The position numbers and the translations under genes were made by a program. From Solirubrobacterales bacterium 67-14 (lineage in GTDB: Bacteria > Actinomycetota > Thermoleophilia > Solirubrobacterales > 70-9), in contig MKST01000002.1 in the NCBI GenBank assembly GCA_001897355.1, positions 426,962-463,592 of the forward strand: a stretch of DNA of 36,631 nt, in the 5' to 3' direction. Below are positions 11,233 through 33,460 of this stretch, piece by piece. Position 1 is the first letter of the stretch. Each line of letters starts with the position of its first letter. The notes beneath the pieces were generated by a model. That model searched no databases. It saw only the letters and a list, made by a program, of their open reading frames with translations, and was not told where the DNA came from.

Positions 11233-11721
11233 ATGCGCGAAGTTCAGATCTACGGAGTCAGCTTCGACATGGTCGGCAAGCAACCGATCGTCCTCTTGAA
11301 GACGGTCGACGACAACCGCTACCTGCCGATCTGGATCGGGCACCCCGAAGCGGCCGCGATCCTGATGAAGCTCCAGGGCGCCGATACGCCGCGGCCGATG
11401 ACCCATGACCTGATGGTCGACATGCTCGACCAGGTCGAGACCAAGGTCGAACGGATCTCGGTCAACGAACTCCGCGACAACACCTTCTTCGCCACGATCA
11501 CCCTCTCGGTCTCCGGCACCGAGATCGAGATCGACTCCCGCCCCTCCGACGCGCTCGCCCTCGCGGTCCGGGTCCAAGCCCCCATCTTCGTCGCTGAGGA
11601 CGTGATCGAAGAGTCCTCGATCGAGTTCGACCAGGGCATCGAAGACAACGAGCAAGTCGTCGAAAAGTTCAAAGACTTCCTCGACGACGTCTCACCCGAG
11701 GACTTCCTCCAAGATTCCTGA
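11233..11721 (+). CDS. Bifunctional nuclease family protein (DUF151)
   Basis: The 162-residue protein matches the DUF151 family: PIVLLKTVDDNRYLPIWIG near residue 20, then EAAAI, the central DLMVDMLDQ, and the conserved SRPSDALALAVR (about residues 101-112). Some relatives have been reported as bifunctional nucleases; a role here is inference. The C-terminus is acidic. The ATG at 11233 is preferred over an upstream GTG because it matches the family start and lies just after a consensus -10. The gene stands alone between the DUF853 gene and a convergent ddl. Confidence 0.88.
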   Translation: MREVQIYGVSFDMVGKQPIVLLKTVDDNRYLPIWIGHPEAAAILMKLQGADTPRPMTHDLMVDMLDQVETKVERISVNELRDNTFFATITLSVSGTEIEIDSRPSDALALAVRVQAPIFVAEDVIEESSIEFDQGIEDNEQVVEKFKDFLDDVSPEDFLQDS

Positions 11722-11750
11722 CCTGGTGGTCACGCACCCGGTGGTCACGC
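11721..11750 (+). repeat. Two tandem 15-bp repeats after DUF151
   Basis: ACCTGGTGGTCACGC (11721-11735) is followed directly by ACCCGGTGGTCACGC (11736-11750), one mismatch. The pair lies immediately after the DUF151 stop codon and runs into the 5' arm of the next hairpin. Confidence 0.6.
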
Positions 11751-11847
11751 CGCGGGGTTGGGCAGGCATCACCGGGACGGAGCGAACGGGCGGCATTCAG
11801 CCGCCCTCCTCCTGAGTGTCCCGGAGACGCCTACCCAACCCCACGGC
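11749..11847. terminator. Nested 99-nt hairpin, likely transcript end structure
   Basis: Three stems are nested. Outer: 11749-11767 pairs with 11829-11847 at 17 of 19 positions. Middle: CCGGGAC (11772-11778) pairs with GTCCCGG (11818-11824). Inner: GGGCGGC (11788-11794) pairs with GCCGCCC (11800-11806) around the loop ATTCA. It lies between convergent genes and merges with repeat copy 1 at its 3' side. It could terminate both strands or be a stable RNA. Confidence 0.5.
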
Positions 11848-11988
11848 TACCCGAACCTAATCGGCTCGACTGCTCCTGCTGCCATGAGGGCAATCCAGTT
11901 CGTAGGCATCTCGGGGGTTCTGGTTTTTCCGACTGCGTAGTCCCGCACCAAGGAAAAAGCAGAACCCCCGAGGCCCAAAGCAACAGGC
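11839..11988 (+). repeat. Structured intergenic repeat, copy 1
   Basis: This element contains a 90-bp core (11899-11988) shared almost exactly with copies at 16406-16495 and 19460-19549. The core holds a 21-nt stem, 11910-11930 against 11952-11972, with one G-G mismatch, and a 21-nt loop that contains a mini-hairpin GACT-GCGT-AGTC. Here the stem pair is C11920-G11962, while the other copies have G-C. The gap 11722-12047 holds this element, the tandem repeats and the nested hairpin; I see no gene in it. Confidence 0.9.
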
Positions 11989-12047
11989 AGAACCGTCAAC
12001 CACCGAAGGAAAGGCAACAGGGCGAGTCGGACCCGCCCGACTTGCCG

Positions 12048-12968
12048 TTAAGCCGTGGCCAGGTCCAGGATTCGCTGGACCATGGCGTTGAAGTCGAGGC
12101 CGGCTGCTTCGGCGGCCTGAGGGAGGAGCGAGGTTTCGGTCAGGCCGGGGATCGCGTTTACCTCCAGCACCTGCGGCCCGTCCTCGGCCAGGATGATGTC
12201 GACCCGGGAGAAGCCCGAGCAGCCCAGGGCTTCGTAGGCGGCGAGGGCAACCCTTTCCACCTCGGCCGCGTCGCCGTCGGGCAGATCGGCGGGGCACTCG
12301 AAGCTGGCGCCGCCGATCTCGTAGCGGGCCGAGAAGTCATAGGTGTTGCTGTCGGTGGGGATCGCCTCGACCACCGGCAGTGCCTCGTCGCCCAGCACCG
12401 AGACGGCCAGCTCGCGGCCGCCGACCCAGGTCTCGAGCATTGCCCGCTCGTCGTAGCTCAGGGCGGTGATCAGCGCCCCCGGAATCTGCTCGAGCTGGGT
12501 CACCACCTTCACCCCGAGCGAGGAACCCTGCGAGGCCGGCTTGGCGACCAGCGGCAGCCCGACCCGTTTCACGGCCGACCCGAAGGTGGTGGCCGCTCCG
12601 AAATCACGGATCGCCGCCTCGGTGTAAGTCACCCAGTCCGGCGTCGGCAGGCCGTGCTCGCGCAGGGTGTACTTGGCGAGGCTCTTGTCCATGCAGCGGA
12701 TGCAGGCAGCGGTCCCAGGACCGGTGAAGGGGATGTCGAGCAGTTCGAGCAGGGCCTGCACCGTGCCGTCCTCGCCCTCGGTGCCGTGCAGGGCGATGAA
12801 GACGACGTCCGGGCGGTGCTTGTCCAGGTGCCCGACCAGGTCGGGCCCGAGATCGAGAACTTCGACCTCGTGGTCGAGGTCGAGCAGCGCCTCGGTCACC
12901 CGCTGGCCCGAGCGGATCGAAACGCCGCGCTCGAGCGAGCGCCCACCCTGAAGCAGCGCGACCTTCAC
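12048..12968 (-). CDS. ddl: D-alanine-D-alanine ligase (ATP-grasp)
   Basis: Ddl joins two D-alanines for peptidoglycan synthesis using ATP. The 306-residue protein has the N-terminal GGRSLERGVSIRSG with the substrate-binding E13, the motif LHGTEGEDGTVQALLELL, and the ATP-grasp core VAKPASQGSSLGV, ETWVGGRELAVSV and the metal-binding EVNAIPGLT. The first motif is ERGVS instead of the usual EHEVS, and CIRCMDKS replaces a normally small-residue segment, so the substrate is slightly open. The GTG start overlaps the aminotransferase stop (GTGA). Confidence 0.88.
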   Translation of the reverse strand: MKVALLQGGRSLERGVSIRSGQRVTEALLDLDHEVEVLDLGPDLVGHLDKHRPDVVFIALHGTEGEDGTVQALLELLDIPFTGPGTAACIRCMDKSLAKYTLREHGLPTPDWVTYTEAAIRDFGAATTFGSAVKRVGLPLVAKPASQGSSLGVKVVTQLEQIPGALITALSYDERAMLETWVGGRELAVSVLGDEALPVVEAIPTDSNTYDFSARYEIGGASFECPADLPDGDAAEVERVALAAYEALGCSGFSRVDIILAEDGPQVLEVNAIPGLTETSLLPQAAEAAGLDFNAMVQRILDLATA

Positions 12969-14284
12969 GATGGATCCTCCCGCTCTACAGGCGGCAACTT
13001 CATTTCATCCGTTGACGTCATCGTCTCGTAGAGCTTGAGCATCTCGCGGGCGACCTGGCCGATCCGGCGGATGCCTTCGATGATCTCGTCCTCCTTGACT
13101 CCGGAGAAGTTGAGCCTCATCGAGCTGGCGCCGCGACCGTCGACGTAGGCGTTCGGGCCGGGCACGAAGGCGACGTTGCGCGAAAGCGCCTTGGCCAGGA
13201 GATCTTCGGTGCTGAGCACATCGGGCATGGTCGCCCAGATGAAGAGGCCGCCCTGTGGCTTGTTCCAGGTCGCGCCGTGGGGGAAGTACTCGGCCATCGC
13301 GTTGATCATCACGTCGCGGCGGGTCCGGTAGATCGCGGTCAGCTCGTCGACGTACTCGCGCCAGCGGCCACTCTGGAAGAAGTGGCCGGCGAAGTCCTGG
13401 GTCAGGGTCGAGGTGCAGAGATCGGCCGCCTGCTTGCCGAGCACCACCTTCTCGCGGATCGGGGTCGGCGTGACCAGCCAGCCGATCCTCAGGCCGGCCG
13501 AAAGGATCTTCGAGAAGGTGCCGAGGTAGACGACGTAGTTGCCGCCGTCGAGGCTGTAGAGGGTGGGGAGCGGGTCGCCCTCGAAACGCAGCAGCCCGTA
13601 GGGGTTGTCCTCGACCACCAGGATCTCCTTCTCCCGGGCGATCTCGACCAGGCGCCGGCGCCGTTCCAGCGAAAGGGTGACCCCGCCGGGGTTCTGGAAG
13701 GTCGGGATCGAGTAGATGAACTTGGGCCGCTTGCCGTCCGCTTCCAGGGTGTCGATCGTCGCTTCGAGCAGGTCCATCCGCATGCCGTCGGCGTCCATCT
13801 CGATCTGCCGCACATCGGCCTCATACGAACAGAAGGTGGGAATCGCCCCCGGATAGGTCGGCGCGTCACAGATGATCACGTCGCCCGGATCGATCAGGGT
13901 CTTGGTGATCAGGTCGATGCCCTGCTGGCCGCCGGTGGTGACGGTGACGTCGATCGCGTCGACCCGGGTTCCCTCGGCCGCCATCACCTCGACGATCTGC
14001 TCGCGAACCAGCATCGAACCCTCGGTCGGCCCGTACTGCAGCACCTCGGCGACCGCCGTCTTCTCGATTCGGGTCATCTCGGCCGCGAAGGCCTCCGGCG
14101 GAAAGGTCGAGGTGTCGGGCAGCCCGCCGGCCAGGGAGATCACTTCGGGTCGGGCGGTTATCTCCATCATGTCCCGCATCGCAGAGGAGCGCATCACCCG
14201 GGTCCGCTTGGCGAACAGCGAGGCGTAACGCTCGAGGTCTTTGGCCCGGGTCTGCTGCCGTCGGGGAGGTGGTGAGGCCGCCAT
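12965..14284 (-). CDS. PLP-dependent class I/II aminotransferase
   Basis: The 439-residue protein is a fold-type I aminotransferase of the LysN/MocR-like group (2-aminoadipate or aromatic/branched substrates are typical). Visible are SLAGGLPD near the N-terminus, LQYGPTEG, N198 in TFQNPGG, D226 and Y229 in VVEDNPYG, the PLP-binding K259 in GTFSKILSAGLRIGW, and the C-terminal MRLNFSG. There is no fused DNA-binding domain. The ATG at 14284 lacks a clear Shine-Dalgarno; CAGAAT ends 6 nt before it. It is coupled to ddl, which might point to amino-acid supply for the wall, but the substrate cannot be read from the sequence. Confidence 0.88.
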   Translation of the reverse strand: MAASPPPRRQQTRAKDLERYASLFAKRTRVMRSSAMRDMMEITARPEVISLAGGLPDTSTFPPEAFAAEMTRIEKTAVAEVLQYGPTEGSMLVREQIVEVMAAEGTRVDAIDVTVTTGGQQGIDLITKTLIDPGDVIICDAPTYPGAIPTFCSYEADVRQIEMDADGMRMDLLEATIDTLEADGKRPKFIYSIPTFQNPGGVTLSLERRRRLVEIAREKEILVVEDNPYGLLRFEGDPLPTLYSLDGGNYVVYLGTFSKILSAGLRIGWLVTPTPIREKVVLGKQAADLCTSTLTQDFAGHFFQSGRWREYVDELTAIYRTRRDVMINAMAEYFPHGATWNKPQGGLFIWATMPDVLSTEDLLAKALSRNVAFVPGPNAYVDGRGASSMRLNFSGVKEDEIIEGIRRIGQVAREMLKLYETMTSTDEMKLPPVEREDPS

Positions 14285-14730
14285 CCTTCTATTCTGCCGG
14301 TATCGACACTTTCGCGACAATTTGCCTCGGCGCCGGAATCGGCATTGCCACCGGGATGATCGCCGGGACCACCGGCCTCGAAGGCTCGGCCCGCGGCCGT
14401 ATGGCCATTCTCGCCGGCATCATCGGCGCGGTGCTCGGCTACCTCGGTGCTTCGGTGCTCGACGGCACCAGCCTCATCGGTCTCCTGGTCGGCGCGATCG
14501 CCGCCGTCTTTTCCACCGCCGTGGTTTCCGACGTGATCGCCGGCGCCCAACGCCGCGGCGGCACCGCGGCCCTGGCCGTGATCAGCGTCTTCCTTGCCCT
14601 GTTGATCGCGATCATCTGCCTGATCGTGCCCTACTTCGCGATCCTCCCGGCCGGCTTCCTCATCTATCTCGCCTGGCGCCGCCGCCAGCAGGCCGATCGC
14701 AAGCACGCCGGCCTCCGCATCCTGCGCTAG
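14269..14730 (+). CDS. Small multi-spanning membrane protein, unknown function
   Basis: I do not recognise this family. The 153-residue frame encodes four to five hydrophobic helices (about residues 14-32, 43-62, 66-90 and a long one at 98-132), with a basic tail ending in RRRQQADRKHAGLRILR. The start is uncertain. GTG 14269 or 14272 would overlap the divergent aminotransferase start by about 15 nt; a later start at the ATG encoding MIAGTTG would lose part of helix 1. It ends 9 nt before the phosphodiesterase gene, so the two are probably one operon. Confidence 0.65.
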   Translation: MVRPPSFYSAGIDTFATICLGAGIGIATGMIAGTTGLEGSARGRMAILAGIIGAVLGYLGASVLDGTSLIGLLVGAIAAVFSTAVVSDVIAGAQRRGGTAALAVISVFLALLIAIICLIVPYFAILPAGFLIYLAWRRRQQADRKHAGLRILR

Positions 14731-14739
14731 GCGCCCGCC

Positions 14740-16341
14740 ATGGCGAAAAAGCTGGTTCTCGCCTATGTCGACTCGCTCCGGACCGACATGCTCCGGCAGA
14801 CGATCGAGGAAGGCCGCGCCCCGACCTTCAGCCGGCTGCTCAAGCGCGGCACCCTGATCGGCGACTGCGTCTCCTCCTTCCCCTCCGTCACCCCGGTCGC
14901 CTCGGCCGAGATGGTCACCGGGGTCCAGGCCGACCGTCACTGGATCAGCGGCATGAACTGGTACCACCGGGCCGAGCAGCGCTATGTCGAGTACGGCTCC
15001 TCGCTCGAGGCGACCCGTGCCTTCGGCCTGTTCCGGTCACTTCATGACCTGGTCTACAACATGAACCTGAAGCACCTCAGCCCTTCGGTCGAAACGGTTT
15101 TCGAGTCCCTGGACGACGCCGGCGTCCGCACCGCCTCGACCCCCTTCCTGATCTACCGGGGCCGTCACCGCCACGACGTGAACCTGGTCGGGATCACCGG
15201 TAAGGCGATCGAGGCCGGCCTGCTCAAGTTCGACTACGGAACCTGGGGCCCGCGAGAGCTCTTCTACGGGGACCTCTACTCCTCGATGGAGACCAACTGC
15301 AAGGCGAGCTCGATCCCCGGCAAGCGGGACATGTACTCGGCCTGCTGCGGGGCCGAGCTGATCTCGCGTGACCGTTTCGACTTCATGCTGCTCGCTTTCC
15401 CCGACAACGACAACTACTCACACCGGCACGGCCCGCTGGCCTCGGTCCGTTCGATCGAAAGGGCCGACTACTGCATGGCCGAGGTGGTCCGGGCAGCCGG
15501 GGGAATCGAGCCCTTCCTTGAAGGTCATGCGCTGATCCTGTTGGCCGACCACGCCCACACCGCGGTCGAGGACACCTACGACCTGATCGAGTGGATGAGC
15601 CGCAAGTGGAAGGTGCTGCCGCCTTCGGCCGAGGATTTCTCCGAGGCCGAGGTGGCGGTCAGCCCGACCTCCCGGGCCGCCCATGTCTACCTGCTGACCG
15701 AGACCGACAACCCGGTCCGGCACCGCCGGATCCGCGAGCACCTCTTCGGCCTCGACGGGACCGAGTTGGTCGCCTGGACCGAACGGGACGGCGAACCGGT
15801 GGCCCGCTCGAACCGGCCCGGCCAACTCGAACCGGGCAACGTCGCGGTGGTGGAAAGGGCCGGTCGCCGGCTCGACTTCTTCCCGCTGGAGGTGCCGCAG
15901 GTTTCGACTGATTACGCGACTAAACCTGCGTCACCTCCGGCGGCCGAAGGCCGTGAAACGGTGACCGACCCGCGGGGGCGGCGCTGGAGCATCAGCGGCA
16001 ACATCGAGGCGCTGGGAGCGGCGGTCGAGGACGGCCAGATCACGATGCCCGATTACCCGGATGGCCTCGGCCGGCTCTGGTCCGCCCTGCGCTCCCCCCA
16101 CGGCGGCGACCTGATCGTCTCGCTCGGCCTCGGCTACGAATGCGTCGACTGGGGCGGCGCGGCCCACTGCCCCGGTGGCAGCCACGGCTCCCTCCGCAAG
16201 GAGGATTCCGAAGGCCCGCTCCTCTTCGTCGGCTGCGGCCCCGACTCACCAGACCCGGAAACCGCGGCCCACCACCAAGCCAGAACCCAGTGGGGCCTCC
16301 AAGACGTAGCCCCAATAATCCGCGAGCACTTTCAGGTCTAG
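14740..16341 (+). CDS. Alkaline-phosphatase-superfamily phosphodiesterase/nucleotide pyrophosphatase
   Basis: The 533-residue protein fits the type I phosphodiesterase/nucleotide pyrophosphatase family of metal-dependent hydrolases. Likely ligands are D11 (LAYVDSLRTD), the nucleophile T51 (SFPSVTPVASAEM), D222 and H228/H230 (FPDNDNYSHRHG), D270 and H271 (LADHAHT), and a late histidine in GGSHGSL (near residue 478). There is no signal peptide, so a cytoplasmic role is likely. Residues about 382-402 (VPQVSTDYATKPASPP) form a Pro/Ala-rich linker encoded by a 61-bp palindrome. The substrate is unknown. Repeat copy 2 begins 6 nt after the stop. Confidence 0.85.
   Translation: MAKKLVLAYVDSLRTDMLRQTIEEGRAPTFSRLLKRGTLIGDCVSSFPSVTPVASAEMVTGVQADRHWISGMNWYHRAEQRYVEYGSSLEATRAFGLFRSLHDLVYNMNLKHLSPSVETVFESLDDAGVRTASTPFLIYRGRHRHDVNLVGITGKAIEAGLLKFDYGTWGPRELFYGDLYSSMETNCKASSIPGKRDMYSACCGAELISRDRFDFMLLAFPDNDNYSHRHGPLASVRSIERADYCMAEVVRAAGGIEPFLEGHALILLADHAHTAVEDTYDLIEWMSRKWKVLPPSAEDFSEAEVAVSPTSRAAHVYLLTETDNPVRHRRIREHLFGLDGTELVAWTERDGEPVARSNRPGQLEPGNVAVVERAGRRLDFFPLEVPQVSTDYATKPASPPAAEGRETVTDPRGRRWSISGNIEALGAAVEDGQITMPDYPDGLGRLWSALRSPHGGDLIVSLGLGYECVDWGGAAHCPGGSHGSLRKEDSEGPLLFVGCGPDSPDPETAAHHQARTQWGLQDVAPIIREHFQV
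15883..15943 (+). repeat. 61-bp palindrome inside the phosphodiesterase gene
   Basis: The inner arms, 15888-15904 and 15922-15938, pair at 16 of 17 positions; the stem extends outward by 4 more pairs and a G-T wobble. The 17-nt loop starts CGACTG, as does the loop of the intergenic repeats. It is read in frame as a low-complexity linker, which suggests a tolerated palindromic insertion. Confidence 0.6.
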
Positions 16342-16346
16342 CGTTA

Positions 16347-16495
16347 CCCCACGGCTACCCAGACCTGATCGGCTCGCCTGCTCCTGTTACCAGCAGGCCG
16401 ACCAGTTCGTAGACATCTCGGGGGTTGTGGTTTTTCCGACTGCGTAGTCCCGCACCAAGGAAAAAGCACAACCCCCGAGGCCCAAAGCAACAGGC
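16347..16495 (+). repeat. Structured intergenic repeat, copy 2
   Basis: The core 16406-16495 differs from copy 1 at 3 positions and from copy 3 at 2. The main stem is 16417-16437 with 16459-16479. The 5' part shares CCCCACGGCTACCC with copy 1 and adds a hairpin, GCCTGCT (16376-16382) with AGCAGGC (16392-16398). It lies between convergent genes and fills nearly the whole gap. Confidence 0.9.
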
Positions 16496-16502
16496 AAACC
16501 GG

Positions 16503-17300
16503 TCAACCCGCGGGTTCGAGGATCTGCCGGAAGTCGGTGGCCAGGCCGTTTTCGCCGATTTCGACGGAGGCGCCCATCACCCAGACGTCCTCGGTGGCGG
16601 TTTCGAAGCGTACGGGCATGTCGGTTCGCATCTTCTCGATCGCCTGCTCCTTCTTCACCCCGAGCACCGAATCCCGGGCGCCGGTCATGCCGACGTCGGA
16701 GATGAAGGCGGTTCCCTGGGGGAGCACCCGCCCGTCGGCGGTCGGGACGTGGGTGTGGGTGCCGAGCACGGCGGCGACCCGGCCGTCCAGCCACCAGCCC
16801 ATCGCGATCTTCTCGCTGGTCACCTCGGCGTGGAAGTCGACGATCACCGTCTCGACCCCGTTCTTGTCCAGTTCGGCGAGGATCAGGTCGGCTTCGTCGA
16901 AGGGGGAGCGAGCGGCGTCGAGTCCGATCTTGCCGATCAGGTTGACCACCCCGACCCGGCGCGACCCGGAACCGTCGGCCGGATTCACCTCGACCACGCA
17001 GTGGCCCTTGCCCGGATTGGCCCGCCGGTAGTTGGCCGGGCGGATCACCCGCTCGGCCCGGTCGAGGTACTCCCAGCTTTCCCGCTGCCGGTAGCTGTGG
17101 TTGCCGAGGGTGATCACGTCGGCCCCGCAGGCGAAGATCTCGGTCGCGGTCTTCTCGGTGATCCCTAGCCCGCCGGCTGAGTTCTCCCCGTTGACCACGA
17201 TCAGGTCCGGCGCGTGCCGTTCACGCAGCCGCGGCATCACCGATGCCAGACCTTTCCTGCCCGGGCTGCCGACCACGTCCCCGATGAACAAGAGCTTCAT
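16503..17300 (-). CDS. ymdB: YmdB-family metallophosphoesterase
   Basis: The 265-residue protein is a YmdB (TIGR00282-type) phosphodiesterase; characterised relatives hydrolyse 2',3'-cyclic nucleotides. The calcineurin-like metal motifs are present: GDVVGSPGR (D8), NGENSAGG, GNHSY, DFHAEVTSEK and GTHTHVPTADG. The usual GNHTWD-type motif is GNHSYRQ here. The ATG at 17298-17300 has no Shine-Dalgarno; a TAGACT ends 6 nt before it on the minus strand. It is divergent from the ABC ATPase gene across only 28 bp. Unlike in many Firmicutes, it is not next to rny. Confidence 0.92.
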   Translation of the reverse strand: MKLLFIGDVVGSPGRKGLASVMPRLRERHAPDLIVVNGENSAGGLGITEKTATEIFACGADVITLGNHSYRQRESWEYLDRAERVIRPANYRRANPGKGHCVVEVNPADGSGSRRVGVVNLIGKIGLDAARSPFDEADLILAELDKNGVETVIVDFHAEVTSEKIAMGWWLDGRVAAVLGTHTHVPTADGRVLPQGTAFISDVGMTGARDSVLGVKKEQAIEKMRTDMPVRFETATEDVWVMGASVEIGENGLATDFRQILEPAG

Positions 17301-17306
17301 GCCGCC

Positions 17307-17320
17307 AGTCTAGGTAGGTT
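17307..17320. promoter_or_regulatory. Back-to-back -10 elements in a 28-bp divergent gap
   Basis: On the minus strand TAGACT (17312-17307) ends 6 nt before the ymdB ATG. On the plus strand TAGGTT (17315-17320) ends 8 nt before the GTG of the ABC gene. There is no room for leaders or a separate operator, so both transcripts would be leaderless and polymerases would compete. Confidence 0.4.
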
Positions 17321-17328
17321 CCCCGGAA

Positions 17329-18063
17329 GTGGATCCGCAGGAAACCAAGCTGGCTCTGGCGGCCCGGGCGGTAACGAAGGCCTTCGATGGCCGTCAGGCT
17401 CTCGACGGAATCGACTTCGAGGTCGCCGCGGGCGAGGTCGTTGCCCTGATCGGCCCGAACGGGGCGGGCAAGACCACGCTGCTCTCGATCCTGGCCGGGA
17501 TTAGCGAACCCGATTCGGGCGAGGTCAGCGGCGACGGGGTCGCCTGGGTGCCGCAGCAGGCGGCTCTCTACCGCCGGCTGAGTGTGCGGGAGAACCTGCT
17601 GCTCTTCGCCCACCTGCAGCACGATGCCGGCCAGACCGACGAGGCTCCGGAAGCGATGGTGGACCGGATGCTGGAGCTGACCGGCCTGGCCGACCGCGCG
17701 GACGACCGGGTCGGCACCCTCTCCGGCGGCAACCAGCAGCGGGTCAACATCGCGATCGGCCTGATGGCCGGCCCGTCGGTGCTGCTGCTGGACGAACCGA
17801 GCGTCGGCCTCGACCCGGCGCAGCGGGAGCGGCTCTGGGGCTTCGTCCTCAGCCTGGTCGGAGAAGGGACCGCGGTCGCCTTCTCGACCCACGACATCCA
17901 AGAGGCCGAGCGCTACGCCGAACGGATCGTGGTCGTCGCCGAGGGAGACGGGCTCTTCAGTGGCACGGCGGACGAGCTCCGCCAGGCGGTCGAAGCCGGG
18001 GGCGGTCCGAGCGGTGACCTCGAGACCTCGTTCCTGGCCTTTCTCCGGGAGCGTGGCCACTGA
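17329..18063 (+). CDS. ABC transporter ATP-binding protein
   Basis: The 244-residue ATPase shows Walker A GPNGAGKT (42-49), a Q-loop (VPQQAALYRRLSV), the signature LSGGNQQRV (about 131-139), Walker B VLLLDEPSVGLD and the switch histidine in FSTHDIQEA. The layout resembles DrrA/NatA-type exporters that pair with an ABC-2 permease. The start is GTG; no strong Shine-Dalgarno is seen. The TGA overlaps the next ATG by one base (ATGA), so the two form one exporter operon. The cargo is unknown. Confidence 0.93.
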   Translation: MDPQETKLALAARAVTKAFDGRQALDGIDFEVAAGEVVALIGPNGAGKTTLLSILAGISEPDSGEVSGDGVAWVPQQAALYRRLSVRENLLLFAHLQHDAGQTDEAPEAMVDRMLELTGLADRADDRVGTLSGGNQQRVNIAIGLMAGPSVLLLDEPSVGLDPAQRERLWGFVLSLVGEGTAVAFSTHDIQEAERYAERIVVVAEGDGLFSGTADELRQAVEAGGGPSGDLETSFLAFLRERGH

Positions 18064-19406
18064 TGCGTTGGCTGCTGCTCAAGGACCTGCAGATCCTGAA
18101 GCGTTCGCCGCTTCAGCTCACGCTGCTCGTCCTCTACCCGATCGTGATCGCCCTCTTGGTCGGATTCGCGATGACCCGTGGCTCCGAGGATCCCACCGTG
18201 GCGCTCTACAACGCGATGCCGGCCGGCGAATCGCTCGGCTTCGGCGGCGAGGAAGTAGACGGCAACGAGATCCGTGACCAGCTCTGCGACCGGGTCGACT
18301 GCGTCGATGCCGACAGCACCGCCGAGGCGAAGGAGATGGTCGAGTCGGGCGAGGCGACGGCGGCGGTGATCGTGCCGGAGGATCTCGGCGAGAAGATCCG
18401 CTCGCTCGCCTCCCTCACCCCGCAGTCACCGGAGATCCAGATCATCGTCAACGGATCCGACGCGGTCGAGAACCGGGTCACCGACGACCGCATCGAGTCG
18501 ATGCTGGGCGAAGCGAACCTGCTGCTCGCCAAACGCCTTTCGGAAGGGGCGAAGCAGTATCTCGACCTGATCCTCAAGGGCGGTCAGTTCGACCTGCTCG
18601 GCCAGCAGATCGAGGTGCTCGGCCTGCAGAAGAGCGAACAGATCCTCAAGAAGATCGAGCCAAAGCTGCCTCCGGGGACCGACAAGGAGCAGCTCCAGCG
18701 CGCCGTCCGCTTCGCCCACCTGGCGACCGACAACCTTGACTTGGCTGGCCCCCTGCTGACCGCGATCACGGAGCCGATCAAGGCTGACAAGGTCGAGGTG
18801 GGTGATCAGGCACCGTCGCTCGACACCTTCGCGATCGGGGTCACGGTCGCCTTCGCCCTGATGTTCGTGACCGTGCTGCTGGTCGCCGGCTCGCTCGCCC
18901 TGGAGAAGGAGGAGAACGCCTTCACCCGGCTCACGGCGGGCCTGGTCAGCCGGATCCAGATCCTGGTCGGCAAGGTCGGCTTGGGCACGGTGGTCGGTTT
19001 CGCTGTCTCGCTGATCTTGATGGTGGGCCTGGGCCTGTTCGTCGGGATCGAATGGGGCAGGACGCCCTACTGGCTGCTCGCCCTGATCTTCGGCGCGGCC
19101 GCTTTCTCGGCCGCCGGGGCCGCCCTCGGCGCGGCGGCCCGCGAGGTACGGGCGGCGACCCTGGCCGCGGTGATGATCTGCCTGCCGGTGGCCCTGCTCT
19201 CCCTGGTCCCGGACGACGCGGTCGGCCCGGCAATCGAAACCGCGATCAACCTGGTCAGCGCGCTCTTCCCCTTCCGCCCAGCCCTCGACGCCATAACCGG
19301 AGGCCTAGAAATATCCGGCCCCAACGTCTGGCTCCCCCTCCTACACCTGGCAATCCTCACGACGGCTTACTCGCTGCTAGCTCGCCTGGCACTCCGCCGC
19401 TTCTGA
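18063..19406 (+). CDS. ABC-2 type permease
   Basis: The 447-residue protein has one N-terminal membrane helix (about residues 18-38), a large extracytoplasmic domain (about 40-255) and five to six helices near the C-terminus, the usual ABC-2 export permease form. The outer domain contains two cysteines close together (CDRVDC, near residue 78) that could form a disulfide, and a VIVPEDLGEKI segment common in such permeases. It forms a pair with the preceding ATPase. Repeat copy 3 follows its stop. Confidence 0.88.
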   Translation: MRWLLLKDLQILKRSPLQLTLLVLYPIVIALLVGFAMTRGSEDPTVALYNAMPAGESLGFGGEEVDGNEIRDQLCDRVDCVDADSTAEAKEMVESGEATAAVIVPEDLGEKIRSLASLTPQSPEIQIIVNGSDAVENRVTDDRIESMLGEANLLLAKRLSEGAKQYLDLILKGGQFDLLGQQIEVLGLQKSEQILKKIEPKLPPGTDKEQLQRAVRFAHLATDNLDLAGPLLTAITEPIKADKVEVGDQAPSLDTFAIGVTVAFALMFVTVLLVAGSLALEKEENAFTRLTAGLVSRIQILVGKVGLGTVVGFAVSLILMVGLGLFVGIEWGRTPYWLLALIFGAAAFSAAGAALGAAAREVRAATLAAVMICLPVALLSLVPDDAVGPAIETAINLVSALFPFRPALDAITGGLEISGPNVWLPLLHLAILTTAYSLLARLALRRF

Positions 19407-19419
19407 CAACCACGTAAAG

Positions 19420-19549
19420 ATCGGCTCGGCTTCGACCTGCTACCAGGAGGGCTGTCCATTTCGTAGGCATCTCGGGGGTTGTGGTTTTTCCGACTGCGTA
19501 GTCCCGCACCAAGGAAAAAGCACAACCCCCGAGGCCCAGAGCAACAGGC
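19420..19549 (+). repeat. Structured intergenic repeat, copy 3
   Basis: The core 19460-19549 has the stem 19471-19491 with 19513-19533 and the same loop as the other copies. The 5' part is more diverged and lacks the CCCCACGGCTACCC block. Unlike copies 1 and 2 it lies between genes of the same direction, just upstream of the hemB promoter. Confidence 0.9.
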
Positions 19550-19574
19550 GTATCCTTCGCCGGCTCGGGCTGCC

Positions 19575-19580
19575 TACACT
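19575..19580 (+). promoter_or_regulatory. -10 element of hemB
   Basis: TACACT ends 6 nt before the hemB ATG (19587). With the usual 6-7 nt from -10 to transcript start, the mRNA would begin at the ATG. No Shine-Dalgarno is present. Confidence 0.45.
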
Positions 19581-19586
19581 TGTCCT

Positions 19587-20545
19587 ATGAGCTTTCCCAG
19601 CACCCGGCTGCGTCGTCTGCGACGGACCCCGGCCCTCCGTGGCCTGGTCCGCGAAACGACACTGAGCCCGGCCGACCTGATCCAGCCGCTGTTCGTGACC
19701 ACCGGCTCCGACCTGCGCGAACCGGTCGAGTCGATGCCGGGGGTGAGCCGCTTCTCGATCGCGGCCCTGGTCGAGGAGGCCGGTGAGATCGAGGCGGCCG
19801 GCATCCCGGCGGTGCTGCTCTTCGGAATCCCCACCGAGAAGGACGAGGCCGGCAGTGGCGCCTACGACGACGAGGGTGTGGTCCAGATGGCGGTCAGGGC
19901 GCTGAAGGAAGCCCATCCGGACCTGATCGTGATCACCGACGTCTGCCTCTGTGAGTACACGGACCATGGCCAGTGCGGTTTCGTCCGTGACGGGCAGGTC
20001 GACAACGACGTGACCGTGGAGCTGCTGGCCCGCACGGCGATATCGCATGCCGAGGCCGGGGCCGACATCGTCGCCCCGAGCGACATGATGGATGGCCGGA
20101 TCGGCTCGATCCGCTACCAGCTGGACGAGGAAGGCCACCCCGACACGGCGATCCTCTCCTACGCGGCCAAGTACGCCTCGGCTTTCTACGGGCCGTTCCG
20201 GGAAGCGGCCGAGTCGACTCCGGCTTTCGGGGACCGCAAGGGCTACCAGCTCGATCCGGCCAACTCCGACGAGGCGGTGCGGGAAGCCAAGCTGGACCTC
20301 GAGGAAGGGGCGGATGCGCTGATGGTCAAGCCGGCTTCGCTTTACCTCGACATCGTGCGGCGGGTCAAGGACGAGACCGGGGCGCCGGTTGCCGCCTACC
20401 AGGTCTCGGGCGAGTACGCGGCGATCAAGGCGGCGGGGGCCAACGGCTGGATCGACGAGCAGGCCGCGGCCCTCGAGTCGCTGGTCTCGATGCGCCGGGC
20501 CGGGGCGGATTTCCTGGTCACCTACTTCGCGAAGGAGGCGGCGGC

Positions 20546-30837: not shown

Positions 30838-31965
30838 ATGAGGGAGAACACCGGCCGCCTCGGTCGTCTATCCACCAAGATCACCGCTGTCGTCGTGGCA
30901 ATCGTGGCGAGCCTCGCCTTCGCGAACGCCGCCCGCGCCGCCGACACCGTGCAAAGCGAATTCAACGACGCCTGGATCAAGCTGCCGGCGCTCGACGCGC
31001 TGCTCAAGGGCTCCATGCACGCGCTGGACCCGGCCGACGCGGCGGGTCTGAAAGTGAACCTCAAGGGCGACTACGATGCTGCCACCGGCAAGGTCGCCTA
31101 CAAGGCGTCCGAATTCAGTTTCCCGCGCCAGAGTTTCGATGCCGGCGCGCTGGGCACGATCAACCTGGACATCACCGCGCTTCAGGACTTTAACGGCACC
31201 TACGACAAGAACACCGGCGCGCTGAAGGTGGACCTGCCGCTGAAGCTCACGGTCGACGCGGCTGGCTTGAATCTGAAGTGTGAACTGCGTCCGCTCAACA
31301 TCGGTCTCGATTCCGCCGGCGCCCCGGTCAACTTCTCGACCGAGGACCTGCCTACCAACAACAAGGCCGGCGCTGCGTTCGCCCCGCCCGCCGGAACCGG
31401 CGCGCTGATCGGCGACTGGACCGATGTCACCGCCGCGAACAACGTCTACGGCATCGCCACCTACGGCAAGAGCGCCGAAGAGATGACTTCGTTCTGCAAG
31501 GACACCATCGCGAGCTTCACCGGCGGTGATGAAAACCAGAGCTTCGACGGGATCATCTGGCTGGGTGGCACCACCACCTTCACCGAGGGTCAGGAGTGTC
31601 CCGCGGGCCAGGAAGGCACCTACCCTGATTGTCATGACATCGTGAAGCCGAAGGCTGTGATCGGCAGCGTGAAGGTCACGAAGGCGACGATCAAGGCCGG
31701 CAAGAAGGGCAAGATCAAGGTCACCGTGAAGAACACCGGTGATGCCGCGTTCTCGGGCAAGGTCACGCTCAAGTCGAGCAACAAGCAGGTCAAGGTCGCC
31801 AAGAGCGTCCAGATCAAGGTTGCCGCCGGTAAGTCGGCGACCAAGACGATCGTCGTGAAGACGACCAAGAAGGCGAAGGGCAAGGCGACCATCACCGCCA
31901 AGGTCGGTGGCAAGTCCGGCAAGGGCAAGGTCACCATCAAGAAGGCCAAGAAGAAGCGGAAGTAG
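30838..31965 (+). CDS. Secreted two-domain protein with Lys-rich C-terminal module (paralogue 1)
   Basis: The 375-residue protein has a signal peptide (residues 1-35, cleavage near ARA-AD), an N-terminal domain (about 36-250) with beta-rich segments such as GTYDKNTGALKVDLPLKLTV, a short linker with two cysteines (ECPAGQEGTYPDCHD), and a C-terminal CARDB/Ig-like module (about 270-375) ending in a run of lysines. No sorting signal is seen; the basic tail may hold it to the envelope. GGGAG lies 5 nt before the ATG. The longer open frame upstream is not used. The 3' 348 bp nearly equals that of the next gene. Confidence 0.85.
   Translation: MRENTGRLGRLSTKITAVVVAIVASLAFANAARAADTVQSEFNDAWIKLPALDALLKGSMHALDPADAAGLKVNLKGDYDAATGKVAYKASEFSFPRQSFDAGALGTINLDITALQDFNGTYDKNTGALKVDLPLKLTVDAAGLNLKCELRPLNIGLDSAGAPVNFSTEDLPTNNKAGAAFAPPAGTGALIGDWTDVTAANNVYGIATYGKSAEEMTSFCKDTIASFTGGDENQSFDGIIWLGGTTTFTEGQECPAGQEGTYPDCHDIVKPKAVIGSVKVTKATIKAGKKGKIKVTVKNTGDAAFSGKVTLKSSNKQVKVAKSVQIKVAAGKSATKTIVVKTTKKAKGKATITAKVGGKSGKGKVTIKKAKKKRK
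31609..31956 (+). repeat. Near-identical 348-bp module, copy A
   Basis: This segment matches 33095-33442 with 346 of 348 bases identical. It encodes the linker end and the Lys-rich C-terminal module. The two differences are a Gly/Ser change and a silent change. Confidence 0.95.
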
Positions 31966-32248: not shown

Positions 32249-33460
32249 ATGAACACCACTCTCGTATCCAACGGCCGAAAGGCCCTCACGGTGAAGGTGG
32301 CTCTGGCCGCGCTTCTGGCCGCATGCATGGCGCTGGCTTTCGGTGCCAATGGTGCCAAGGCCGACCCCCCAGCTGCCGGCGATCCGTTCGCAGCCGATTT
32401 CAACTACGCCGGCCTGAATGTCGACGTCACCCTGGCCCAGATCGACCAGCTGGTCCTCAAGGACGAAGGCGAGCCGCTCAAGATTCGCGGCGAGTATTCC
32501 AACGCCAACGGCGACTTCACCTTGCCGAAGGCCACCGGCCTCCAGTTCCCGGACATCAGCATTCCGATCACCGATGACGTCAACCTGAGCGCGACCATCG
32601 GTCTCGACAAGGCCGGCAGCGGCCACTATGACGCTTCGTCCGGCGACCTCGACATCGACGCCAGCATCGCGCTGACCATCGGCGTCGACGACATCGGGGC
32701 CCTGCCGGCCGAGTACCAGGGCATCTTCGGCGGCGGTACCGGCGCGCTCAAGTGCGTCCTTGCCCCGATCGACGTCTCCCTCTCGACCAAGAAGGGTTGG
32801 CCGCATGCCGGAAAGCCCTTCGCCGACAAGGACAACCTGACCGACGGTGCGGTCGCCGGCGCTTGGCGCAGCAAGCCTGACGCAACGGTCGTTCCGGGCA
32901 TGGGCAAGCAGTCCACCTGCGACCTGGTCGGCGGCGTCCTTCAGGACGTCGGCGGCCTCTGGCTCGCGAACAGCAGCACGCCGATCACTGACATGCCGGC
33001 ACCTTTCGATCCCAAGCCGCCCCCCAACAACTGCGAGGAGATCGGCAAGGTTGGCGACTGGGGCCACTGTGAGGATCCGGTCTGTCCGGAAGGTCAGGAA
33101 GGCACCTACCCTGATTGTCATGACATCGTGAAGCCGAAGGCTGTGATCAGCAGCGTGAAGGTCACGAAGGCGACGATCAAGGCCGGCAAGAAGGGCAAGA
33201 TCAAGGTCACCGTGAAGAACACCGGTGATGCCGCGTTCTCGGGCAAGGTCACGCTCAAGTCGAGCAACAAGCAGGTCAAGGTCGCCAAGAGCGTCCAGAT
33301 AAAGGTTGCCGCCGGTAAGTCGGCGACCAAGACGATCGTCGTGAAGACGACCAAGAAGGCGAAGGGCAAGGCGACCATCACCGCCAAGGTCGGTGGCAAG
33401 TCCGGCAAGGGCAAGGTCACCATCAAGAAGGCCAAGAAGAAGAAAAAGGGCAAGAAGTAG
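32249..33460 (+). CDS. Secreted two-domain protein with Lys-rich C-terminal module (paralogue 2)
   Basis: The 403-residue protein has a signal peptide (residues 1-38, cleavage near AKA-DP), an N-terminal domain related to that of the previous gene (GHYDASSGDLDIDASIALTI aligns with its GTYDKNTGALKVDLPLKLTV), a cysteine-bearing linker (CEEIG, HCEDPVC, PDCHD) and the shared Ig-like, Lys-rich C-terminal module with a slightly longer tail. Function is unknown. The ATG has a strong Shine-Dalgarno (GGAGG, 4-nt spacing). N-terminal domains have diverged far more than the 3' modules, suggesting recent gene conversion. Confidence 0.85.
   Translation: MNTTLVSNGRKALTVKVALAALLAACMALAFGANGAKADPPAAGDPFAADFNYAGLNVDVTLAQIDQLVLKDEGEPLKIRGEYSNANGDFTLPKATGLQFPDISIPITDDVNLSATIGLDKAGSGHYDASSGDLDIDASIALTIGVDDIGALPAEYQGIFGGGTGALKCVLAPIDVSLSTKKGWPHAGKPFADKDNLTDGAVAGAWRSKPDATVVPGMGKQSTCDLVGGVLQDVGGLWLANSSTPITDMPAPFDPKPPPNNCEEIGKVGDWGHCEDPVCPEGQEGTYPDCHDIVKPKAVISSVKVTKATIKAGKKGKIKVTVKNTGDAAFSGKVTLKSSNKQVKVAKSVQIKVAAGKSATKTIVVKTTKKAKGKATITAKVGGKSGKGKVTIKKAKKKKKGKK
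33095..33442 (+). repeat. Near-identical 348-bp module, copy B
   Basis: Partner of 31609-31956 with two differences over 348 bp, same orientation, offset 1486 bp. The flanking coding sequences on the 5' side are clearly diverged. Confidence 0.95.

What the first reader, a model, noticed from the sequence alone, without database searches (positions are those of the whole stretch)
11839..19549. Dispersed intergenic element with an invariant hairpin and a compensatory base-pair swap
Three copies in 7.7 kb (cores 11899-11988, 16406-16495, 19460-19549) share a 90-bp core that varies at only four positions. Each folds into a 21-bp stem with one fixed G-G mismatch and a 21-nt loop containing a GACT/AGTC mini-hairpin. 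Two of the four variable positions are paired with each other: C-G in copy 1, G-C in copies 2 and 3. The same change removes the TTG that would start a short frame in copies 2 and 3, which argues against coding. All copies lie in the same orientation 3' of a plus-strand gene. The extreme conservation of the loop as well as the stem is unlike a simple terminator; a REP/MITE-like element, a structured RNA or a protein-binding site are all possible. I know of no named family that matches, but I could not search.
Basis: seen in the sequence. Interest (0 to 1): 0.85.

Follow-up and report, generated by a model that had tools for sequence, protein, structure and literature searches.

The report
Mobile hairpin repeats at gene ends
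An uncultured actinobacterium carries a scattered family of roughly 125-letter DNA repeats that sit mostly where genes end, often where two genes end facing each other; their long hairpin is kept intact by matching changes on both arms, which points to a selected folded form, but how they spread and what they do is not yet known.

Summary
The three window copies belong to a family of 16 copies in this genome (11 'type a', one 5'-truncated and one partly unread; 5 'type b'), with 10 more read in 5 of 17 congeners. The unit is about 125 nt: conserved, dissimilar ends (GCTCGAC......GCAACAGG) and a stem of mostly 21 bp (19-26) capped by a conserved internal loop GAC/C(C,A)AA around an inner hairpin. 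Stems differ widely between variants yet stay paired: 97.5% of cells, 19 of 25 pairs with two-sided changes, 0 of 500 shuffles. Stem imperfections are 12 G.U-type, 0 A.C-type, so one strand appears to fold. Copies favour convergent gaps and are missing from most orthologous gaps tested in relatives, several of which hold other hairpins. No Rfam family, TIR or target duplication; Y1, RVT_1 and Transposase_20 families were not found. Best reading: a REP-like, non-autonomous mobile palindrome of an undescribed family without the usual REP transposase, kept as a folded single strand (most likely RNA) at gene 3' ends. Terminator or insulator function is inferred, not shown.

The parts
11863..11987 (+). 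Copy 1 of the element (type a), between the DUF151-type gene (ends 11721, +) and ddl (ends 12048, -), which converge on it (gene names recalled from the translations)
   Evidence: CM match G000:C2:438824-438948, 153.6 bits; gene context
11910..11930 (+). Copy 1, 5' stem arm (21 bp, one G-G mismatch)
11931..11951 (+). Copy 1, 21-nt apical region: internal loop GAC / CCAA around inner hairpin TGCG(TAGTCC)CGCA
11952..11972 (+). Copy 1, 3' stem arm
11749..11847 (-). H1: a second, unrelated repeated hairpin directly upstream of copy 1 (19-bp outer stem). 12 places in the genome on the main strand; 7 of them are followed by the element
   Evidence: Imperfections of the outer stem are A.C-type on + (12 against 1 G.U in the 8 of 12 places counted), so it would fold best on -
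16371..16494 (+). Copy 2 of the element (type a), between a phosphodiesterase-like gene (ends 16341, +) and a ymdB-like gene (ends 16503, -), convergent
16417..16479 (+). Copy 2, stem-loop (arms 16417-16437 and 16459-16479)
19423..19548 (+). Copy 3 of the element (type a), between an ABC-permease-like gene (ends 19406, +) and a hemB-like gene (+), co-directional
19471..19533 (+). Copy 3, stem-loop (arms 19471-19491 and 19513-19533)

Best explanation
The element is a short, non-autonomous, REP-like dispersed palindrome, found in our searches in one genus of Solirubrobacterales only. It spreads to new intergenic places by a mechanism not identified here, and it settles or survives mainly where genes end, especially between convergent genes. 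Its defined strand is kept as a folded molecule: a stem of mostly 21 bp whose sequence can change but must pair, capped by a conserved GAC/C(C,A)AA internal loop and inner hairpin that something presumably recognises. The simplest form is RNA at the 3' ends of transcripts, where such a hairpin would block or trim read-through between convergent genes, as has been proposed for REPs. Shown here: dispersal, differences in presence between species, covariation, one-strand wobble, convergent-gap enrichment. Inferred: that it is transcribed, that the loop binds a protein, that it ends or insulates transcripts, and that an enzyme supplied in trans moves it.
For: 16 copies at unrelated loci of one genome, many beside core genes. 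Window sites: gene order is kept in relatives, and the gaps read there hold no copy, being short or carrying other hairpins. The model R2 run over 46 loci of relatives and this genome scores 100 bits or more only at this genome's copies and the G007 copy; the best match elsewhere is 21.8 bits (L031), a hairpin with another loop. tig-clpP gap: two copies here, none in the 11 congeners printed, three of which carry another two-hairpin element. Glycosyltransferase gap: of 14 genomes printed this one has the element, G007 has it in the opposite orientation, 12 lack it. Covariation over 16 copies: 97.5% of cells paired, 19 of 25 pairs changed on both sides, 0/500 shuffles, 37-54% paired when partners are slid. 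Wobble: 12 G.U-type, 0 A.C-type within the stems of 22 copies (p about 0.0005 if independent). Convergent gaps: 7 of 13 element-bearing gaps against 9 of 67 other gaps of 80 bp or more, p = 0.003. REPs are reported to lie mostly between convergent or co-directional ORFs, near 3' ends (PMC3733652: abstract and one section read).
Against: No mobilising enzyme: no Y1_Tnp, RVT_1 or Transposase_20 in this genome, but it is a 95% complete assembly and other transposase or recombinase families were not searched. No exact empty site could be read, because congener gaps are too diverged. Some copies persist by descent: G001, G013 and G015 copies seem to share one site. In co-directional gaps the folding strand is antisense to the neighbours in 4 and sense in 3 of 7 copies, which does not fit a plain 3'-UTR element. 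No promoter-like site in window 11700-19620. No U-tract after the stem on either strand in the 23 rows scanned (one row read the wrong loop). The wobble count covers only the stem proper: in a 26-base comparison A.C and G.U juxtapositions also occur just outside the stem base. One-strand wobble could come from ssDNA folding or strand-biased C-to-T mutation.
Confidence: 0.6

Rival explanations
1. It is foremost a functional RNA element, a bidirectional terminator or 3'-end insulator without a U-tract, copied about by recombination and retained at gene ends because it works there; mobility is secondary.
For: Convergent-gap enrichment; two-sided changes in 19 of 25 pairs; one-strand wobble in this element and, with opposite polarity, in H1; a third hairpin family shows G.U 9 to A.C 1; other hairpins occupy the same gaps in relatives; the simple terminator scan flags two minus-strand sites with short stems and T-rich tails at the 3' edges of copies 1 and 3, in a region with 7 such sites against 3.4 expected.
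Against: Absent from most orthologous gaps tested, so not needed there; no U-tract directly after the main stem in the 23 rows scanned; copies antisense to both neighbours exist; found in only 6 of 18 genomes of the genus.
Confidence: 0.22
2. It is a single-strand DNA element, like the palindromic ends of IS200/IS605 or REP units, whose hairpin is recognised as ssDNA by a lost or undetected HUH enzyme.
For: No inverted ends and no target-site duplication; strand-specific hairpin; GTAG beside the stem base in 10 of 23 rows, as in GTAG-tagged REPs (PMC3733652 abstract).
Against: No Y1_Tnp found in any carrier genome, four of which are incomplete; GTAG missing from the five type b copies; unit and stem longer than the 20-40 bp given for REPs.
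Confidence: 0.13
3. A recent local duplication without function; the paired changes come from quasi-palindrome correction by template switching, not from selection.
For: The three window copies are near-identical and lie within 7.7 kb; template switching can perfect inverted repeats (recalled).
Against: Copies lie on six contigs of this genome and in six genomes; loop and internal loop are conserved while stems diverge; template switching predicts no excess of G.U over A.C, but 12 to 0 is seen.
Confidence: 0.05

Closest known systems
REP elements / BIMEs with RAYT transposases (GTAG- and CGTC-tagged palindromes)
   Same: Dispersed intergenic palindromes, mostly 3' of genes and between convergent or co-directional ORFs; mosaic neighbours; GTAG beside the stem in 10 of 23 rows (PMC3733652 abstract and section 15)
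   Different: About 125-nt unit, stem mostly 21 bp, conserved loop; 16 copies where PMC2817692 (abstract) gives usually over 100; tag not conserved; no Y1 found in any carrier
Correia elements (CREE/NEMIS) of Neisseria
   Same: Element of similar size (recalled) with evidence of mobilisation and RNase III binding (PMC2649163, title and start of abstract in the search listing)
   Different: CREE have inverted repeats at their ends; none here; no sequence comparison was made
Rickettsia palindromic elements and mitochondrial double-hairpin / repetitive hairpin-forming elements
   Same: Dispersed hairpins in gaps, some inside genes (search listings only; remainder recalled)
   Different: Other organisms; no sequence comparison was made
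Rfam 15 families
   Same: Only sub-threshold matches, the four on the element itself to microRNA precursor models, E 0.04-0.15
   Different: No family reaches its gathering score on the element (window; four loci)

Membership tests
REP (RAYT-associated) | Linked or resident Y1/RAYT transposase | tested here: not met
   0 matches in this genome; 3 of 50 family genomes have one, none a carrier; four of the five congener carriers are 73-81% complete
REP (RAYT-associated) | GTAG or CGTC tag at the stem base | tested here: inconclusive
   GTAG in 10 of 23 rows scanned (one row read the wrong loop), none of the five type b copies; CGTC was not scanned
REP (RAYT-associated) | 20-40 bp unit, high copy number | tested here: not met
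   About 125 nt, 16 copies
REP (RAYT-associated) | Intergenic, predominantly at convergent or co-directional gene 3' ends | tested here: met
   7 convergent, 5 co-directional, 1 divergent of 13 element-bearing gaps
MITE of a DDE transposase | Terminal inverted repeats and target-site duplication | tested here: not met
   2-7 of 20 end bases match; mean TSD-like length 1.12 against 1.17 for shuffled flanks, 17 copies
Intrinsic terminator | U-tract directly after the main stem | tested here: not met
   0 of 23 rows on either strand, one row misread, fixed 21-bp offset; but two weak minus-strand consensus sites with short stems overlap copies 1 and 3
Intrinsic terminator | Ends transcripts | not testable with these tools
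   no RNA data at hand
Integron attC site | Ends RYYYAAC ... GTTRRRY (motif recalled) in a cassette array | tested here: not met
   By eye: stem base of most type a copies reads GTT ... AAC, the reverse order; neighbours are ordinary genes
Known Rfam RNA | Gathering score reached | tested here: not met

The most novel reading that the evidence does not exclude
These bacteria carry several families of portable 3'-end hairpins, each with a conserved loop and a freely changing but still paired long stem, and each folding on one defined strand. They are swapped in and out of gene ends over evolution like exchangeable transcript-end cassettes, each read by its own loop-binding factor. The given element (GAC/CCAA loop), H1 and the GGAGCGAAGCGAC-loop family would be three such families.
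Probability: 0.25. Interest if true: 0.8.

Novelty: new variant of a known kind. Interest (0 to 1): 0.57.

Why it matters
[quoted passage not shown] abstract). This family offers a sharp case: near-identical copies, no inverted ends or target duplications, and gaps where close species carry different hairpins or none. The G.U against A.C count gives a simple way, usable on any palindromic repeat family, to ask which strand folds. If the hairpins do end transcripts, this lineage would show gene-end control being supplied by replaceable mobile elements.

Tried and rejected
Rfam: at gathering score only tRNAs in the window; at E up to 1, six sub-threshold matches on four loci. Phage and plasmid collections by blastn and two exact loop patterns in viral contigs: no match. 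Metagenome contigs were not open. Replication-strand bias: GC skew in the window is weak and changes sign, so dropped. The order-wide hit outside the genus (G139) is a plain long hairpin without the GAC/CCAA loop and is not counted. attC was set aside on end motifs (recalled). Literature: repeated palindromic with compensatory and four more terms gave 0 papers; Solirubrobacterales with repetitive and hairpin gave 0; other searches gave only the known families cited. 'Undescribed' rests on these searches of an open-licence library and on Rfam. Of PMC2267715, a survey of stem-loop families, I saw passages only.

Rows dropped: A2 used 9 of 11 type a copies (not the partly unread or the 5'-truncated one). 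A4 used 16 rows from four genomes: it lacks those two, the type b copy with a loop insertion, and antisense and duplicate matches; it was fitted to the structure and leans towards it. Copies found are not in A4. In one search two stems with a bulge or double wobble were measured short (G007, G013a), and the type b copy with a loop insertion and the partly unread and truncated copies are left out. mis-anchored the H1 arms; one search is the corrected count on 8 of 12 H1 places, and by distinct columns it is only about 4 to 1. One search printed 12 of the 18 best clpP loci, 14 genomes; one search covered 46 loci with the model, including the rest. In G012 another gene lies upstream of clpP, and L028 ends before the first window gap, so these say nothing.
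Full report
CHECK. Seven copies of the family folded singly each beat all 200 shuffles, z -4.4 to -8.1.

HOW MANY, AND WHERE. A DNA search of the window's own genome (12 contigs, 95% complete) found 11 places plus 3 antisense self-matches. A covariance model from 9 of them (A2, R1), run over 50 genomes of the family, found five more here, 'type b', with the same ends and internal loop but another stem. Total 16 in this genome: 11 type a (one 5'-truncated, one partly unread) and 5 type b (one with a loop insertion). A model from 16 copies of four genomes (A4, R2) was run over 232 genomes of the order with strict filters: 6 of 18 genomes of the genus match, and one genome elsewhere whose hairpin lacks the loop. 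Ten congener copies were read: four in G001, two each in G011 and G013, one each in G007 and G015. Most of the nearest named relatives in a gene search are Solirubrobacterales MAGs.

ANATOMY. 5' end [AG]GCTCGACT(T/G)CTCCTG, about 30 variable bases, stem base, a stem of mostly 21 bp (19-26 where measured whole), internal loop GAC on one side and CCAA or CAAA on the other, inner hairpin, 3' arm, then ...GCAACAGG. The conserved 5' end is seen in the 16 rows of A4; the copies added match mainly over the stem-loop. Apical regions seen: GACTGCGTAGTCCCGCAC(C/A)AA, GACTGGG(A/T)CTGTGCACACCAA, GACTCAGTCTGTGCTGACCAA, GACTCAGTCCGTGACGGCTGACCAA, GACTGAAGCCGAAATTCGGTTCACCAA. Four type b copies of this genome and the copies of G013 and G015 share one apical sequence exactly while the stems of G013 and G015 differ from type b.

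THE FOLD IS KEPT. In A4, 97.5% of 394 cells are standard pairs, 16 of 21 stem pairs and 3 of 4 inner pairs show two-sided changes, the covariation score is 0.511 against 0.130 for shuffles (0 of 500), and slid partners pair 37-54%. A4 was fitted to the structure and leans towards it; one inner pair is broken in 4 rows. Within this genome alone (A2, aligned by MAFFT without structure) 9 of 25 pairs change on both sides, 0 of 500 shuffles.

ONE STRAND FOLDS. In the stems of 22 copies the imperfections are 12 G.U-type, 0 A.C-type and 10 other, several of the last being the inherited G-G. Related copies share some, so p = 0.0005 is optimistic; with 8 independent events it would be 0.008. Just outside the stem base, juxtapositions of both kinds occur in type a; I treat those bases as unpaired. 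The neighbouring repeat H1 leans the other way, A.C 12 to G.U 1 on the same strand (8 of 12 places; about 4 to 1 by distinct column), so it would fold on the opposite strand. A third hairpin family gives G.U 9 to A.C 1 on its own strand over 8 listed places, of which at least one may be chance. RNA is the simplest cause; folding of one DNA strand or strand-biased mutation are not excluded.

MOBILE OR REPLACED. Gene order around the window copies is kept in relatives, and the gaps read there hold other hairpins or nothing like the element. At tig-clpP this genome has two copies back to back; of 11 congeners printed none has one. At the glycosyltransferase gap this genome and G007 carry it in opposite orientations, and 12 other genomes printed do not; several hold other hairpins. 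R2 over 46 of these loci scored 100 bits or more only at this genome's copies and the G007 copy; the best match elsewhere, 21.8 bits in L031, is a hairpin with another loop. G001, G013 and G015 copies seem to share a site, so some copies persist by descent. There are no inverted ends and no target duplication. Y1_Tnp, RVT_1 and Transposase_20 were not found in this genome.

CONTEXT. Of 19 copies (16 here, 3 in congeners) 14 have an upstream gene ending towards the element and 15 a downstream gene ending towards it; 11 are convergent, 7 co-directional, 1 divergent (genes called by codon usage, not annotated). In 11 stretches of this genome, chosen around copies, 7 of 13 element-bearing gaps are convergent against 9 of 67 other gaps of at least 80 bp, p = 0.003. 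REPs show similar placement (PMC3733652, section 15). No U-tract follows the main stem, so it is not a canonical intrinsic terminator, although a simple scan flags weak minus-strand sites at copies 1 and 3.

MOSAIC. H1 stands directly before the element at 7 of its 12 places and before other sequence, often other hairpins, at the rest. A 45-bp palindrome GGTGACGCAGG...CCTGCGTCACC occurs at four exact places here and in three of 17 congeners; a variant lies in frame inside the phosphodiesterase-like gene of the window and of L030, absent in L029, L031 and L033.

VERDICT. A real repeat family, undescribed as far as the searches named above show, that behaves like REPs but fails REP membership on transposase, size and copy number. 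Mobility and a selected fold are well supported; the mover and the job are not known.

Noticed in passing
window 15891-15935: A 45-bp palindrome (GGTGCCGCAGG...CCTGCGTCACC) sits in frame inside the phosphodiesterase-like gene; L030 has a version at the same place, L029, L031 and L033 do not. The family has four exact pattern matches elsewhere in this genome, reminiscent of Rickettsia palindromic elements.
   Followed up: partly
window 11749-11847: H1, a repeated long hairpin with 12 places in the genome on the main strand; its imperfections suggest folding on the minus strand.
   Followed up: partly
L033:940-1009; also in L031, L115, L181, L205: Another hairpin family: loop around GGAGCGAAGCGAC (or GGAGCGCAGCGAC) with stems of about 21-31 bp that differ between places.
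   Followed up: partly
L182, L185, L188 (after tig); L029, L030 (after other genes): A two-hairpin element beginning near GCAAGTCGGGCGG directly after stop codons, sense to the gene, with a second stem that varies around a similar loop.
   Followed up: no
L209, L213: Hairpins with loop TTTAG..CA.AT.G...CCAC on unrelated stems, one tandemly doubled.
   Followed up: no
window 31585-31884 and 33071-33370: A 300-bp near-identical direct repeat (97%) near the ends of two adjacent predicted genes.
   Followed up: no
L133/L134 (tig-clpP gap): Two copies lie back to back, each followed by a short stretch resembling a further 3' end (CCCCGA...GCAACAGG), as if earlier copies had been 5'-truncated.
   Followed up: no
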